The notes under the pieces: model-generated | Databases searched by the model: none | The model's input: only the letters and a program-made list of their open reading frames with translations | Told to the model about the DNA's origin: nothing | In this document: positions 2,582-17,582 of the stretch, piece after piece | Numbering within the stretch: position 1 is the first letter of the stretch | How the letters are laid out: each line of letters begins with the position of its first letter | From: JADFSZ01 sp022560555 [NCBI: PVC group bacterium] | GTDB taxonomy: Bacteria; GCA-001730085; JADFSZ01 | Length of the DNA: 18,678 nt | Direction of reading: 5' to 3' | Assembly: GCA_022560555.1 (NCBI GenBank) | Contig: JADFSZ010000010.1 | Coordinates: 1 to 18,678 of the forward strand | Program-made: the position numbers and the translations under genes

Positions 2582-4383
2582 GAAGGTGCCTTTTCAAGCG
2601 TGTGACTTAGGCCCACAAGTTTTTCAAATTTATTCACGCGTTCTTTAATCAAATATTCCAACAGATCATCTATGATTGTCATCGCGCGGTTCGGGTGAAT
2701 AAAATTGACTGTCCCTAGAGCTATAACCTTTGAGCCCGCATACACAAATTCAAGCGCGTCAAACAGATTCATGATCCCGCCCATACCCATAATCGGAAGT
2801 TTAGTCGCCTGATACAATTGCCATACCATCCGCACAGCCAAAGGCTTAATCGCCGGCCCCGAAAGGCCACCCATTCCCTGTCCAAGAACCGGCATTGCGG
2901 TCGCAGGATCAATCGCCATTCCCAAAAATGTATTCACAAGACTAAAGCAATCAATCCCGTAATCCTCACAGGCACGCGAAATTTGCGTAATATCAGTCAC
3001 ATTTGGTGATAGTTTTACAATACAAAACAAATTGGTATTTTTTCTGACAACATCCACAACTTTCGCGGCTGTCGAAGGATCCGTCCCAAACTCCATGCAT
3101 CCCTCGTCCATGTTCGGACAGGAAATATTGACCTCTATCGCTTGCACGCCCTCAGCATCATTCAATCGCTTAGCAATTTCGCCATAATCCTCGATCCGCT
3201 CGCCGGATATATTCACAATCACGGCTGTATCATATGAACGAACCTTCGGAAGCATCGTTTTGATAAATTCGTCCACGCCATAATTCTGCAGGCCAATAGT
3301 GTTTAACAGCCCCGCCGGTGTTTCCGCGAGACGTTGCTGACGATTCCCCGTCCGGGAGTGTAGAGTAATCCCTTTAACGGCTATCCCTCCCAAGCGGGAC
3401 AAATCCATGATGTCCTTAAACTCTTCGCCATATCCAAATGTTCCGGAAGCGGTGATAATGGGATTTTTTAAACGCAGTTTTCCTAAATCAACGGTCAAAT
3501 CTGTTTTGAATACGGCTTTCTTTTCACGTACCTGATCAATCAAATTTACACGTTCGCCACGCCAGTCCCATTGAAGTTTATCTCCAAAAAATACCGGGCC
3601 GTCCTTGCAAACTCGTTTAATCCCCTCTTCAGTATTCACCACACAGCTCAAACATGCTCCCAAACCGCAGCCCATTTGTTCTTCGAGACACAGCTGAGAC
3701 GAGATTCCATTATCAAGAGCGATCGTTTGCACTTTTTTAAGCATGACCGTCGGACCACAGGTGTAAATCAAGTCATAGTGTTGGCCATCGTTTAATTCTT
3801 TTTTGAAACAATCTGTGATATAACCTTCGAACCCTTCGGATCCATCCTCAGTCGAATAAAAAACAGGGCACTCCAGCCGTTCAACATCATGACGGCAAAG
3901 CAGATCTTCTTTTCTTCGCCCGCCGATAAAGACAGTCGGTTTCATATTTTTGTGTTGATTTAAAAAATCCGCGAGAAAAATGAGCGGAGGAATCCCGACA
4001 CCGCCCCCGATAAGCGCAATATTTTTTTCTTCGATATTCGCTTCATACTGAAAAGCATTTCCGACAGGGCCCATCACGTCAATCTCATTATCCTCCTTGA
4101 GTTGAGACATTTGCTCAGTACCGCGGCCGACAAGTTTATAAAGGATTTCGAAAATGGTCCCTTTATCCGTTTTTTTGTATTTGTAAATACTAAACGGGCG
4201 TCTTAAGAGAGGATCGTAAACATCCTGAGCACGGCAAAGAATATGAAGGAATTGTCCCGGCAATACAAGATCAAATTTTTCGGATGTCTCGATTACCATC
4301 CAAAAATATTCATCTGTGATAGGTTCGTTCGCACGTATAGCCGCTGCAAAATTTTTCATCATAATTTTCCCGTCATTTATCAT
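2578..4383 (-). CDS. pyrKD: Fused dihydroorotate dehydrogenase 1B: PyrK electron-transfer module plus PyrD catalytic module
   Basis: One open frame of 601 residues carries both subunits of NAD-dependent dihydroorotate dehydrogenase, which oxidises dihydroorotate to orotate. Residues 1-275 are PyrK: FAD motif RRPFS (61-65), NAD-binding GGGVGIPPL (126-134), and [2Fe-2S] ligands C239, C244, C247, C259. After a linker of about 20 residues, 295-595 are PyrD: VKGIT (K337), NTIGLQN (362-368), NISCPN with the class-1 active-site C422, VKLSPN (K457) and GMGGI (533-537). In Bacillus and Lactococcus these are two genes in the same order, so the fusion follows operon order. The ATG used here overlaps a mini-ORF stop as TAATG with no ribosome site; ATG at 4362 or 4359 are alternatives with a weak GGGA upstream. 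It overlaps pyrF by 4 nt. Confidence 0.95.
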   Translation of the reverse strand: MINDGKIMMKNFAAAIRANEPITDEYFWMVIETSEKFDLVLPGQFLHILCRAQDVYDPLLRRPFSIYKYKKTDKGTIFEILYKLVGRGTEQMSQLKEDNEIDVMGPVGNAFQYEANIEEKNIALIGGGVGIPPLIFLADFLNQHKNMKPTVFIGGRRKEDLLCRHDVERLECPVFYSTEDGSEGFEGYITDCFKKELNDGQHYDLIYTCGPTVMLKKVQTIALDNGISSQLCLEEQMGCGLGACLSCVVNTEEGIKRVCKDGPVFFGDKLQWDWRGERVNLIDQVREKKAVFKTDLTVDLGKLRLKNPIITASGTFGYGEEFKDIMDLSRLGGIAVKGITLHSRTGNRQQRLAETPAGLLNTIGLQNYGVDEFIKTMLPKVRSYDTAVIVNISGERIEDYGEIAKRLNDAEGVQAIEVNISCPNMDEGCMEFGTDPSTAAKVVDVVRKNTNLFCIVKLSPNVTDITQISRACEDYGIDCFSLVNTFLGMAIDPATAMPVLGQGMGGLSGPAIKPLAVRMVWQLYQATKLPIMGMGGIMNLFDALEFVYAGSKVIALGTVNFIHPNRAMTIIDDLLEYLIKERVNKFEKLVGLSHTLEKAPS

Positions 4384-4412
4384 TAGTCATTCGTCATTAA
4401 TCAATCGTCATT
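4371..4412 (-). repeat. Heptamer tandem repeat at the pyrC/pyrKD junction, forming chained mini-ORFs
   Basis: Six units of 7 nt (plus strand: cgtcatt, tatcatt, agtcatt, cgtcatt, aatcaat, cgtcatt) cover the end of pyrC, the gap and the start of pyrKD. On the coding strand, ATG at 4411 reads MTID-stop, ATG at 4397 reads MTND-stop, and ATG at 4383 opens pyrKD (MINDGK). Successive starts are exactly 14 nt apart and each stop overlaps the next start as TAATG. The repeat is read directly; any role in translation is inference. Confidence 0.8.
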
Positions 4413-10430: not shown

Positions 10431-12257
10431 TTAACGGGATGGACTAATAAATTGGTCCCGGGATAATATGGGGCAGAACAGTCCAAGATATTTTCTCTTC
10501 CACCACGCACCCGTTTCTGATCTCTCCATTATATCCGTAAACTGATAATCGTACAAGCTGGCCCGAATATGCAGCGGAGCCTGATCAACGAAAGGATTGG
10601 TCTCTAACAGCTTTGTAACAGCCGGTGAATTCTCAAAAAGCTTACGCACAAAATGAAAAAACCAGGGACTTCGTTCATAGCTCCCAAGCGCGGCAAACCA
10701 CATCTGCCAATCCAGTCGGGGCTGATGAGGAACAACCCATCCGGGAGCCCGCATGACATCTCCGGGTTTATAGCGAAATATATACGGCTTCCATGTTTGG
10801 CCATCCATACTTCCTTCGATAATGATTTCGGGACGTGTCCGTGTCATCACGGAAAAAAGCCCATATGTGCTTGTAAGATGCCATGGATTCAGCAACCGTG
10901 CGAGAATTACTCCCGGTTTCACAAACACATTTTGAAACCCGACACGCCAAAACATTTGGCTTGTCGAAGACACGAGGATCACACACGCAAGCGGGATAAT
11001 AATCCATCTGGGCCACTGCGATTTGCTTTCTGCCGGCTTATTTTTAAACCATTTTCGTTTTTGCCACCACGCGTCTTCCAAACAAAACAAACAGAGAACC
11101 ATGACCAATAAATTAAAGAAGCAATAATTCCCCGTCAGAATAATAATAATCTGGAATAATACAAAAAAGAAACAAACCAAATGTCGCAGTCGACGTGCGG
11201 CAAAAAGAAAAAACGGAGCAACAAGTTCGATAACAAACATAATTAGACACGACCCGATATGAAGCCAAACCGGAGCTTGGTCCATCCACCAGCTCAAGAC
11301 ATGCGGGAGAGGTTGTGTTTCATAATGATATGTGAGGGCCGTTAGATCGTGCCATGCAGGATCTCCCGAAAGAAGTTTGACAATCCCCGATAGAATCATG
11401 AGACGAAAGAGAAGCCATTTTACCAAAAACACAATCCATTGTGACGGACGGATAGAATTTCGAATCCGGTCCGTAATAACAAAGGGAGATAAAAATATCG
11501 TTAAAAATCCCGCCTCTAAGAGCAGTATGTCCCACTGAAAATTTAAGAAAACCTGACTAATATTGAGATACGATAAATACAAGATCCACAAAGAAGCGCT
11601 TGCGAACAAAGGCAAGATACCCATAATCAGCAAAAGGCTCAAAATAACGCCCATCCAACAGCCAGCCGTGAGCGTAATATCAGTGCTTGAAATCCAAAAA
11701 ATGCTCGGCAGCCGCATCAGGCTGGCTGAACCCATTTGCTCATGTACGGCGCTTAAATAAGATTCGGCAGGCAAAATTCCGTCGCTGCCGTACAAGCCTT
11801 GAATTTGCGTAAGAAGAGACCAAAAGGCGAATAGATATATCAGACCCATGGAGCGCCGAAAGAACCAAGCCGATGTCTGATATGTTTCTCTCCACCCACC
11901 CCCCATGGCAATCCAGCTTTTTAACAATCGAAATCCAACACCATGGTACGAAAAAAAACGATAGAGCTTTTCAAAGACAAATTTTGCTCCCGGCAGCTTT
12001 TTATAGATCCACAAAAGCCAGCCAAGGGGTGATCCGGACAACGCGCGAAAAATCGCTTCGGCTCCTCTGGACATGTGTCCTTCGCCATCCGAAAAATGAA
12101 TGGCTTCTTCAAAATCACTCCGGGATACTTTTGGAAATTGTTCTAAGACTTCTTGGAATGGGACAACATCGATTTTATCGCCGCACCAGGAGGGTAAACG
12201 TTTGGCACAGGCGCCGCAAACAATGCATTCACCGTTATAGATCAACGTCTTTTTCAT
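10431..12257 (-). CDS. Membrane protein: DCC thiol-redox (DUF393) domain fused to lipase maturation factor (LMF1-like) domain
   Basis: A 608-residue protein with two parts. Residues 1-75 look like a DCC/DUF393 thioredoxin-like domain: LIYNGECIVCGACAK has a CxxC pair (C11, C14), but Asn where most members have Asp (YDG), plus an extra C17. Residues about 130-600 match the lipase maturation factor family: RRSMGLIYLFAFWSLLTQIQGLYGSDGILP, FLNFQWDILLLEAGFL (237-252), SGIVKLLSGDPAWHDLTALTYHYETQPLP (290-318), GNYCFFNLL (376-384), roughly eight membrane spans and a soluble tail. Vertebrate LMF1 acts in the ER in maturation of dimeric lipases and redox balance; the bacterial role is unknown to me. RR before the first span suggests a cytoplasmic DCC domain. 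The start ATG lies in the last unit of a 17-nt repeat and lacks a ribosome site. Confidence 0.88.
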   Translation of the reverse strand: MKKTLIYNGECIVCGACAKRLPSWCGDKIDVVPFQEVLEQFPKVSRSDFEEAIHFSDGEGHMSRGAEAIFRALSGSPLGWLLWIYKKLPGAKFVFEKLYRFFSYHGVGFRLLKSWIAMGGGWRETYQTSAWFFRRSMGLIYLFAFWSLLTQIQGLYGSDGILPAESYLSAVHEQMGSASLMRLPSIFWISSTDITLTAGCWMGVILSLLLIMGILPLFASASLWILYLSYLNISQVFLNFQWDILLLEAGFLTIFLSPFVITDRIRNSIRPSQWIVFLVKWLLFRLMILSGIVKLLSGDPAWHDLTALTYHYETQPLPHVLSWWMDQAPVWLHIGSCLIMFVIELVAPFFLFAARRLRHLVCFFFVLFQIIIILTGNYCFFNLLVMVLCLFCLEDAWWQKRKWFKNKPAESKSQWPRWIIIPLACVILVSSTSQMFWRVGFQNVFVKPGVILARLLNPWHLTSTYGLFSVMTRTRPEIIIEGSMDGQTWKPYIFRYKPGDVMRAPGWVVPHQPRLDWQMWFAALGSYERSPWFFHFVRKLFENSPAVTKLLETNPFVDQAPLHIRASLYDYQFTDIMERSETGAWWKRKYLGLFCPILSRDQFISPSR

Positions 12258-12341
12258 AAAAAAGTTATTTTCAGTAAAAACACCGTTTCATAAAAAAGTC
12301 AATTTCATTAAAAATACTGTTTCATGGAAATACTGTTTTAT
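12254..12341 (-). repeat. 17-nt tandem repeat of start-codon units at the isochorismatase/LMF junction
   Basis: On the coding strand, units resembling CAGTATTTTTAATGAAA repeat with start codons at 12325 (ATG), 12308 (ATG), 12291 (ATG), 12274 (CTG) and 12257 (ATG, the gene start), each exactly 17 nt apart. An older degenerate unit lies at about 12341. Each start opens a mini-ORF (MKQYF, MKLTFL, MKRCFY, then CTG-KITFL) whose stop overlaps the next start, as TAATG once, as ATGA (12291, 12257), and as CTGA at 12274. The real protein starts MKKTLI, so the units look like copies of its own initiation region. Plus-strand 34-bp blocks at 12254-12287 and 12288-12321 are nearly identical. Confidence 0.85.
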
Positions 12342-12348
12342 GGAAAAA

Positions 12349-12888
12349 TCACTTTACCATTTTGATAATGGCCCTAAAAATCTCTCCCTCTGCCTCTTTT
12401 AAAAGTTCAAACATGGCCGTCTCAGTGCTCGTCAAAATACCACCGCTCTTTTCAATCTTATGAATGCCGATTTTATGATCCTCTAAGTCTCTCGAACTTG
12501 TTGCATCACACACAAGATGGACCTCAAAACCCTCGTTGATCAAATCCACAGCGGTTTGATAAACGCAAACGTGAGTTTCGATCCCTGCCAAGAGCACGCA
12601 AGACCGATTATGATCCTTGAGTCCTTTGAGACAGGCTTCTTGAGCTAGACAGCTAAAAGACTTCTTAGGAATGGCTTGAAAATCATTGAGAAAAGATCGG
12701 ATCGGGGCAACTGTTTCGCCGAGTTTTTCAGGAACTTGTTCGGTGAATGTGAGGGGAATATTCATTACCATGCATCCCTGAATCAGGATCCGCAGTTTCG
12801 AAAAACAATCATCCTTACGATGCACCAAAGGAAGCAGTTTCTCCTGAACATCCACGATCAGGCATTGTGTTTTGTCTGTTTGCAGCAT
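12349..12888 (-). CDS. Isochorismatase-family cysteine hydrolase
   Basis: A 179-residue alpha/beta hydrolase of the isochorismatase-like superfamily (ISOC/YcaC-type). The catalytic triad is visible: D13 in LIVDVQEKL, K75 or K76 in IPKKSFSC, and nucleophile C108 in LLAGIETHVCVYQTA (99-113), where the Ile-Glu bond is usually cis. Members cleave amides or related bonds in small molecules; substrate cannot be predicted and nothing nearby indicates siderophore synthesis. The ATG has a strong AAAGGAG site. It starts 12 nt after the secreted orphan gene, likely in one transcript, and is followed by the 17-nt repeat leading into the LMF-like gene. Confidence 0.9.
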   Translation of the reverse strand: MLQTDKTQCLIVDVQEKLLPLVHRKDDCFSKLRILIQGCMVMNIPLTFTEQVPEKLGETVAPIRSFLNDFQAIPKKSFSCLAQEACLKGLKDHNRSCVLLAGIETHVCVYQTAVDLINEGFEVHLVCDATSSRDLEDHKIGIHKIEKSGGILTSTETAMFELLKEAEGEIFRAIIKMVK

Positions 12889-16801: not shown

Positions 16802-17539
16802 TTAGGCGAGAACAATATCCGCAAATGCAAAAGGACCTTTTTGGACACACCCGGACACATGATACCGAATGGCTTCCCGGAATAGAGGGCCATCCACCAC
16901 AAACGAATGAAACTCCCCCTTCTCTCCACACGGATCCACATCCGGAGGAAGAGCCTTAAGCCATTCATCATCAATTAAACGTCCCAGAAAATCTACCGAT
17001 AGCTTTCGCGTGTCCACACAACTAACCAAGGCTTTTATACCACACCTCATCATTTCCAAGATCAGATCATCCGTCGGCCTCAGCCACAACGGAAATAAAG
17101 GTTTGATCCGGGTCGAAGATAACTGTTTGATACGATAATCACGGACATCTTCCAAAAACAAATCCCCGAACGCCATATGTTCAACTCCTGCCGCTTCGGC
17201 TTCGTGAATAATCTTCATCATAGATTTCTCATATTCTTCATTGGACGCTTCATCGGGAATTTCAACAATATCGATCGGAATTCCAAGACATTCAGCCTGT
17301 CTTCTAAGAAGTTTTAAAGAAATCCCATGCATAAATACCCGTTTGTATTTCTGATTAATCGTCGTTACCAAGCGATCAACATGATACTCTTTTTTCTTTT
17401 TTAATTCCTGAAGCATATACATGCTGTCTTTTCCCGTACTCCAGCTAACAAATAAGCCTGTCTTCTTAGAAACTTTAAGCGCTGAGTTTTTTTCGGCTTG
17501 ATCATAATTTTTCGTTTTCATCTTAAAATTGTTTTTCAC
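16802..17539 (-). CDS. DUF71/COG2102 ATP-pyrophosphatase (Dph6-related; probable B12-salvage subgroup)
   Basis: A 245-residue N-type ATP pyrophosphatase: PP-loop VSWSTGKDS (31-39), then AFGDLFLEDVRDYR (123-136) and VDPCGEKGEFHSFVVDGP (201-218), the family signature. Eukaryotic and archaeal relatives (Dph6) amidate diphthine, but bacteria do not make diphthamide; comparative genomics of the family has tied bacterial members to vitamin B12 salvage. The neighbouring BtuC-like permease agrees with that. The frame starts at GTG 17539, but ATG at 17521 (239 residues) is equally possible; both lie in a start-codon repeat and neither has a good ribosome site. Function is inferred from family and context. 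Confidence 0.85.
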   Translation of the reverse strand: MKNNFKMKTKNYDQAEKNSALKVSKKTGLFVSWSTGKDSMYMLQELKKKKEYHVDRLVTTINQKYKRVFMHGISLKLLRRQAECLGIPIDIVEIPDEASNEEYEKSMMKIIHEAEAAGVEHMAFGDLFLEDVRDYRIKQLSSTRIKPLFPLWLRPTDDLILEMMRCGIKALVSCVDTRKLSVDFLGRLIDDEWLKALPPDVDPCGEKGEFHSFVVDGPLFREAIRYHVSGCVQKGPFAFADIVLA

Positions 17540-17582
17540 TTAAAATGTTTTTCATTAATATTGTTCTTTCCCTAAAATTGGC
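17519..17582 (-). repeat. 16-18-nt degenerate repeat at the permease/DUF71 junction
   Basis: On the coding strand, units like CAATTTTAAGATGAAAA recur about four times from the end of the permease gene (CAATTTTAG, containing its stop) to the start of the DUF71 gene. ATG at 17555 opens the mini-ORF MKNILSEKQF, ending TAA one base before ATG 17521. GTG at 17539 is in frame with the DUF71 gene. Spacings are 16 and 18 nt, less regular than at 12254-12341. Confidence 0.6.

What the first reader, a model, noticed from the sequence alone, without database searches (positions are those of the whole stretch)
12254..12341. Chain of overlapping mini-ORFs built from a 17-nt repeat of the gene's own start region
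Starts at 12325, 12308, 12291, 12274 (CTG) and 12257 are exactly 17 nt apart. Each opens a 5-6 codon ORF whose stop overlaps the following start, and the last start is that of the LMF-like gene, which has no ribosome site. The mini-peptides (MKQYF, MKLTFL, MKRCFY, KITFL) resemble the protein's own MKKTLI. A ribosome finishing the hydrolase gene could reinitiate step by step to the LMF start. A 17-nt period equals 2 modulo 3, exactly what puts the TGA of ATGA in frame. Slippage alone predicts no preferred phase.
Basis: partly seen in the sequence, partly recalled or inferred. Interest (0 to 1): 0.75.

Follow-up and report, generated by a model that had tools for sequence, protein, structure and literature searches.

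The report
Start-codon tandem repeats between genes
A short stretch before one bacterial gene is built from a 17-letter repeat that copies the gene's start signal several times; it belongs to a family of such repeats in this genome, and the chain of tiny reading frames it creates is probably a by-product of the copying, though a stepping-stone role for ribosomes is not excluded.

Summary
On the minus strand, between an isochorismatase-family hydrolase and an LMF gene, xTG triplets lie exactly 17 nt apart at 12325, 12308, 12291, 12274 (CTG) and 12257; each of the first four opens a 5-6 codon ORF whose stop overlaps the next. It is not unique. In the 47% of this genome that I held, intergenic tandem repeats concentrate at period 7/14 and period 16-18/34, far above shuffles. 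Two more arrays, L130:7543-7597 and L193:458-564, show a similar chain. But the period is about 17 whether or not an array contains a sense ATGA. Start-covering arrays split 5:5 between periods 1 and 2 mod 3. In the 17-nt class, sense start/stop junctions occur only where an array overlaps a gene start. Across copies the first base of the start codon is less conserved than TTTT and TGAAA. I conclude that a lineage-specific T-tract/A-tract repeat grew across an SD-less start and that the mini-ORF chain is most likely a by-product. A relay like that proposed for MIRUs remains possible.

The parts
12252..12346 (-). 17-nt tandem array (one 16-nt step at its upstream end); about 5.5 copies; unit pattern AAA-N5-TTTT-NN-xTG
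12338..12352 (-). GTG mini-ORF VIFP* whose start overlaps the hydrolase stop (GTGA)
12308..12325 (-). mini-ORF 1, MKQYF*, TAATG overlap with the next start
12288..12308 (-). mini-ORF 2, MKLTFL*, ATGA overlap with the next start
12271..12291 (-). mini-ORF 3, MKRCFY*, overlap with a CTG
12254..12274 (-). mini-ORF 4, CTG start, LKITFL*, ATGA overlap with the LMF start
10431..12257 (-). LMF-family gene with an N-terminal DCC1-like domain; its ATG is the last copy of the array
12349..12888 (-). isochorismatase-family hydrolase, upstream gene
17516..17580 (-). second array of the same class (steps 16 and 18) over the start of a Diphthami_syn_2-family gene

Best explanation
The array belongs to a class of short AT-rich tandem repeats special to this genome (unit 16-18 nt, a T-tract then an A-tract) that sits between genes, often close to the start of the next gene. 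Here the repeated segment includes the LMF start region (TTTTNNATGAAA), so repeated tandem duplication copied the start codon upstream. Because the unit carries ATGA and its length is 17, every copied ATG meets an in-frame stop that overlaps the next copy. The chain of mini-ORFs is therefore a by-product. LMF is probably initiated at the last copy, in a U-rich/A-rich context without a Shine-Dalgarno sequence; some leakage of ribosomes through the chain may occur. Shown: the array, its class, the sister arrays and the lack of a phase preference in a small sample. Inferred: growth by tandem duplication, neutrality of the chain, and how LMF is initiated.
For: Direct repeats in 347 intergenic regions concentrate at lags 7, 14, 16-18 and 34 (40 of 51 lag hits), against a mean of 0.0-0.2 per lag in shuffles; in the same-phylum genome G001 lags 7, 14, 16, 17 and 18 give 0, lag 34 gives 2. 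Arrays of about 17 nt occur without a sense ATGA and with the same period. Start-covering arrays split 5:5 between 1 and 2 mod 3. Start/stop junctions in co-directional 17-class arrays: 22 sense against 1 antisense in 5 arrays that overlap a start, but 0 sense against 4 antisense (all in L135) in 6 that do not. Units are alike across unrelated genes, LMF against L193 16 of 17; 7 of 78 array pairs beat all 40 shuffles. The first base of xTG is the same in 8 of 11 adjacent-copy comparisons, against 11 of 11 for T and G and 9-10 of 11 for AAA. No 16-18 nt array scoring above 7.5 was found upstream of LMF in the 12 of 80 homologue loci that I scored (higher scores there were 13.0 at lag 8 in L032 and 11.0 at lag 36 in L033), and none is visible before the second LMF gene, printed but not scored.
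Against: 17-class arrays lie nearer to gene starts than random placement: 10 of 12 within 25 nt, expected 7.2, P 0.023; 7 of the 11 co-directional ones are also within 25 nt of the upstream stop, so gaps are short. Column conservation is strongly uneven (none of 20,000 permutations reached it), with TTTT and TGAAA kept, which hints at constraint. L130 gives a complete relay and L193 a nearly complete one. The phase test rests on 10 arrays, and some starts of the heptad arrays among them may be miscalled.
Confidence: 0.62

Rival explanations
1. Ribosome relay: ribosomes that end the hydrolase gene reinitiate at each overlapping mini-ORF and so reach the SD-less LMF start; the 17-nt period is kept by selection because it is 2 mod 3.
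For: The chain exists and recurs. L130 is unbroken (TAATG, ATGA, ATGA), and L193 has stop-to-start gaps of 4 nt at most if a GTG is allowed. 9 of 10 start-covering arrays lack an SD core, against 44% of 664 starts with one. Coupling needs overlaps or very short gaps (PMC10666635, abstract and section 6), which the chain would supply. Short upstream ORFs could deliver ribosomes to a downstream gene (PMC12548453, passages).
Against: No excess of 2 mod 3. The same period occurs without a sense ATGA. One LMF link is CTG, and two of the six xTG copies in L193 are CTG. The first step from the hydrolase stop is 23 nt to an ATG or needs a GTG followed by a 12-nt gap. In E. coli a 38-nt gap cut reinitiation by 80-90% in two gene pairs and fully in a third.
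Confidence: 0.13
2. Repeated binding site: the copies of T-tract + TGAAA are sites for ribosomal protein S1, a cold-shock-type protein or a DNA-binding protein, and help or regulate SD-less initiation, as was proposed for TAACTGA repeats.
For: TTTT and TGAAA columns are conserved while the spacers vary. The class sits close to starts. The core TTTTCA/TGAAAA is a quasi-palindrome, and arrays match each other in either orientation. There is a precedent in Beggiatoaceae (PMC4679880, abstract and sections 7, 9, 13 and 25).
Against: TTTTNN-NTGAAA is not a general start motif: 3 of 665 starts. The left half of the dyad is less conserved (cols 13-14, 5 of 11). L115 lies 122 nt from the next start, and L135 carries ATGA on the other strand. 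No ligand is known.
Confidence: 0.2
3. Chance or an assembly artefact.
For: The genome is a draft of 222 contigs.
Against: Shuffles give essentially no such arrays. Nine separate contigs of the held part carry 17-class arrays (L163 not counted), most with diverged copies.
Confidence: 0.03

Closest known systems
TAACTGA heptamer direct repeats of marine Beggiatoaceae (PMC4679880; abstract and sections 7, 9, 13, 25 read)
   Same: Short intergenic tandem repeats, mostly just upstream of start codons that lack a Shine-Dalgarno sequence; units hold stop codons and near-start triplets.
   Different: Unit of 7 nt with one fixed sequence, and 169 direct-repeat sets in that genome, found also in some Cyanobacteria and Bacteroidetes. 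Here the unit is 16-18 nt with a loose T-tract/A-tract consensus, and some arrays include the start codon itself.
MIRU, mycobacterial interspersed repetitive units (one passage in PMC12548453 seen; further detail recalled)
   Same: Repeat units that carry a small ORF coupled to the next gene with a -4 nt spacing.
   Different: MIRUs are described as apparently mobile and inserted at start codons; as recalled, units are several times longer. Here the unit is 17 nt with 5-6 codon ORFs, and I have no evidence of insertion of a mobile unit.
Termination-reinitiation coupling at ATGA/TAATG overlaps (PMC10666635: abstract and section 6; PMC6728339: start of abstract in a search listing)
   Same: The individual junctions between mini-ORFs are of the -4 and -1 type.
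   Different: The two annotated genes are 91 nt apart; coupling would need four or five successive events on tiny ORFs.

Membership tests
Lineage-specific short intergenic tandem repeats near start codons (TAACTGA-like kind) | sharp repeat period shared by many intergenic arrays of one genome | tested here: met
   lag scan of 347 intergenic regions: 40 of 51 lag hits at 7, 14, 16-18 and 34; shuffles 0.0-0.2 per lag; 187 regions of G001 give 0 at lags 7, 14, 16, 17, 18 and 2 at lag 34. At the lower score 11, period 5 also gives 12 intergenic arrays, without a shuffle control
Lineage-specific short intergenic tandem repeats near start codons (TAACTGA-like kind) | preference for positions near start codons | tested here: met
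   17-class 10 of 12 within 25 nt, expected 7.2, P 0.023; heptads 11 of 24, expected 11.1; modest
TAACTGA repeats proper | heptamer unit TAACTGA | tested here: not met
   unit 17 nt, AAA-N5-TTTT-NN-xTG
MIRU | small ORF in the repeat overlaps the next start by 4 nt | tested here: met
   ATGA junctions at 12291 and 12257, TAATG (1 nt) at 12308, CTGA at 12274
MIRU | mobile unit inserted at start codons | tested here: inconclusive
   units are alike between some loci, but no empty site was available for comparison: the only same-phylum genome held has no isochorismatase or LMF match
Termination-reinitiation gene pair | overlap or very short distance between the two genes | tested here: not met
   91 nt between hydrolase and LMF
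Termination-reinitiation gene pair | downstream translation depends on upstream translation | not testable with these tools
   needs a reporter or ribosome profiling

The most novel reading that the evidence does not exclude
A self-made reinitiation ladder: tandem duplication of an SD-less start region has built a row of 5-codon ORFs with overlapping stops and starts that carries ribosomes across an intergenic region up to about 90 nt long, at several operon junctions of one candidate-phylum genome, with the T-tract + xTGAAA of each rung kept by selection.
Probability: 0.13. Interest if true: 0.75.

Novelty: new variant of a known kind. Interest (0 to 1): 0.42.

Why it matters
It gives a natural test of how far bacterial ribosomes can walk by repeated termination and reinitiation on very small ORFs, a disputed matter. 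It also shows a genome in which short tandem repeats of two preferred lengths occur at gene junctions, including across the start codons of genes such as LMF, a low-molecular-weight phosphatase and a prmC-like gene. If only a by-product, it is still a warning that start-codon ladders can arise from repeat growth alone.

Tried and rejected
Rejected: (1) an RNA family, as Rfam gave only two matches far below their gathering scores, both microRNA models; (2) a strong RNA fold, z -1.4; (3) a promoter or terminator: one promoter-like match on the other strand, 0.6 expected, and no terminator; (4) a general TTTT-ATGAAA start signal in this genome, 3 of 665 starts; (5) orthologous comparison of the junction, since no near relative is held: the one other genome of the phylum has no match to either gene, and the 80 named LMF homologues listed are at most 46% identical. 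A first gene caller failed (12 genes) and was replaced (725 genes). The survey of ATGAA triplets in 386 genomes was listed only in part and was used only as a remark; the ATGA survey of this genome was also listed in part, is full of coding matches and was not used. A paper search for tandem start codons with reinitiation and tandem repeats gave one irrelevant paper. Nothing like this 17-nt class was seen in the titles and abstract starts of those listings, which is not proof of absence from print.

Rows dropped before counts: arrays with no called neighbour on one side (L124:8693, L118:192) are not. L163 (period 34) is counted although its units look like heptads, and is left out, as is L118:192. 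L193:70-116 lies inside a called gene; it is but not. The G188 palindromic place was counted once. The first L130 unit compared lies partly in the upstream gene.

Full report
What is there. The window is one contig (C130) of a draft genome of 1,658,262 bases in 222 contigs. On the minus strand an isochorismatase-family hydrolase (12349-12888) is followed after 91 nt by an LMF-family gene with an N-terminal DCC1-like domain (10431-12257). Nearly all of the gap is a tandem array of period 17. Seen in register, the copies read AAA-N5-TTTT-NN-xTG, where xTG is ATG at 12325, 12308, 12291 and 12257 and CTG at 12274. A GTG also overlaps the hydrolase stop. The LMF start is supported by homologues that align from residue 2.

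It is one of a class. I held 100 stretches, 782,989 bases (47%), of this genome with 725 called genes. In 347 intergenic regions of at least 25 nt, direct repeats at score 13 concentrate at lags 7 (17 regions), 14 (7), 16 (2), 17 (7), 18 (2) and 34 (5), 40 of 51 lag hits; these counts can share a region. Shuffles gave a mean of 0.0-0.2 per lag. At the lower score 11, without a shuffle control, intergenic arrays are 25 of period 7, 12 of period 5, 11 of period 14, 6 of 17, 4 of 16, 3 of 34, 1 of 18 and 16 of other periods. The only other genome of the phylum held, G001, gives 0 at lags 7, 14, 16, 17 and 18 and 2 at lag 34 in 187 regions. The about-17-nt arrays share a T-tract followed by an A-tract. 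Units of different loci can be nearly the same: the LMF array and that of L193 share a 16-of-17 match, and 7 of 78 array pairs exceed all 40 shuffles; most pairs do not.

Sister chains. L193:458-564 and L130:7543-7597 fill the gap between two co-directional genes, much as here. In L130 the upstream gene ends in TAATG; the copies MKIFFQ* and MNILFQ* follow with ATGA overlaps, and the last ATG starts a low-molecular-weight phosphatase whose Pfam match begins at residue 3. L193 has six xTG copies, two of them CTG. L116 (prmC-like gene) has one extra copy at a step of 16, and the second array in the window (17516-17580) has steps of 16 and 18, so those are out of phase for the relay.

The phase test. 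Of 659 starts examined in this genome, 10 are covered by a tandem array with a start codon one period upstream: periods 7 (1), 14 (3), 16 (2), 17 (2), 22 (1), 34 (1), that is 0, 5 and 5 for 0, 1 and 2 mod 3. Period 0 mod 3 cannot be seen this way because the caller takes the longest ORF, and some heptad cases may be miscalled starts. In 80 loci of other phyla the count is 3 of 863 starts, and in G001 1 of 317. In 386 genomes searched for TTTNATGAAA pairs, 35 have a match; this genome has 8 places (periods 16, 17 and 34) and the other 385 have 47, with periods 27, 12 and 8 for 0, 1 and 2 mod 3, coding repeats included. Arrays of this class that hold no sense ATGA have the same period: 17 in L199, L135, L193:7472 and L124, 16 in L118, 18 in L115. 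The period therefore looks like a property of the class, not of start codons.

Start and stop junctions. In 11 co-directional arrays of the 17 class, the 5 that overlap a start hold 22 junction motifs (ATGA, TAATG, TGATG) on the sense strand and 1 on the other; the 6 that do not hold 0 and 4, all four in L135. The junctions come with the copied start. Between adjacent copies of the three chains, T and G of xTG are kept in 11 of 11 comparisons, AAA in 9-10, TTTT in 10-11, and the first base of the start codon in 8; the heterogeneity among columns was reached by none of 20,000 permutations. That pattern suggests some constraint, but on T-tract + TGAAA rather than on ATG. A relay needs the ATG.

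Points in favour of function. The 17 class, unlike the heptads, lies close to starts more often than random placement (10 of 12 against 7.2 expected, P 0.023; heptads 11 of 24 against 11.1), though 7 of its 11 co-directional arrays are also within 25 nt of the upstream stop. 9 of the 10 start-covering arrays lack an SD core, whereas 44% of 664 starts in the genome have one. So a role in SD-less initiation, as suggested for TAACTGA repeats in Beggiatoaceae (PMC4679880), is possible.

Comparison. Short upstream ORFs that could deliver ribosomes are an established idea, and MIRUs are a recorded case of a repeat unit that carries a small ORF coupled to the next gene with a -4 nt spacing (PMC12548453, passages). 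Coupling falls steeply with distance: a 38-nt gap removed 80-90% of it in two E. coli gene pairs and all of it in a third (PMC10666635 section 6). For LMF the weak points are the first step (23 nt, or a GTG) and the CTG link.

Verdict. It is a member of a class of intergenic repeats peculiar, as far as I could see, to this lineage; the start-codon ladder is most likely a by-product of repeat growth across an SD-less start. The relay is possible but has failed the one test that could be run here, with small numbers.

Noticed in passing
window 4371-4412: Heptad-type array (periods 7, 14 and 21, NNAATGA-like units) over the called start of a fused DHODB-type Fe-S/NAD-binding and DHO_dh gene; one of 25 + 11 intergenic arrays of period 7 or 14 in the held 47% of the genome, whose unit sequences differ widely (GTAAATG, AGTTCGG, CTCCGAA, AACAAGA). 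A fixed period without a fixed sequence is unexplained.
   Followed up: partly
window 17516-17580: Array of the same 16-18 nt class over the start of a Diphthami_syn_2-family gene; steps 16 and 18.
   Followed up: partly
L193:70-116: A similar motif (TTTCATTGAAAAAAGTTA) as an 18-nt, frame-keeping repeat inside a called gene that itself starts with a 17-nt array.
   Followed up: no
L199:5304-5389: Nearly perfect 17-nt array directly before a recG-like gene in which four of five copies repeat an SD-like TTAAGGA instead of a start codon.
   Followed up: no
   Followed up: no
L161 (C111):970-2502: A second, shorter LMF gene whose match to the first begins at residue 125, past the DCC1-like part; no array visible upstream by eye.
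   Followed up: partly
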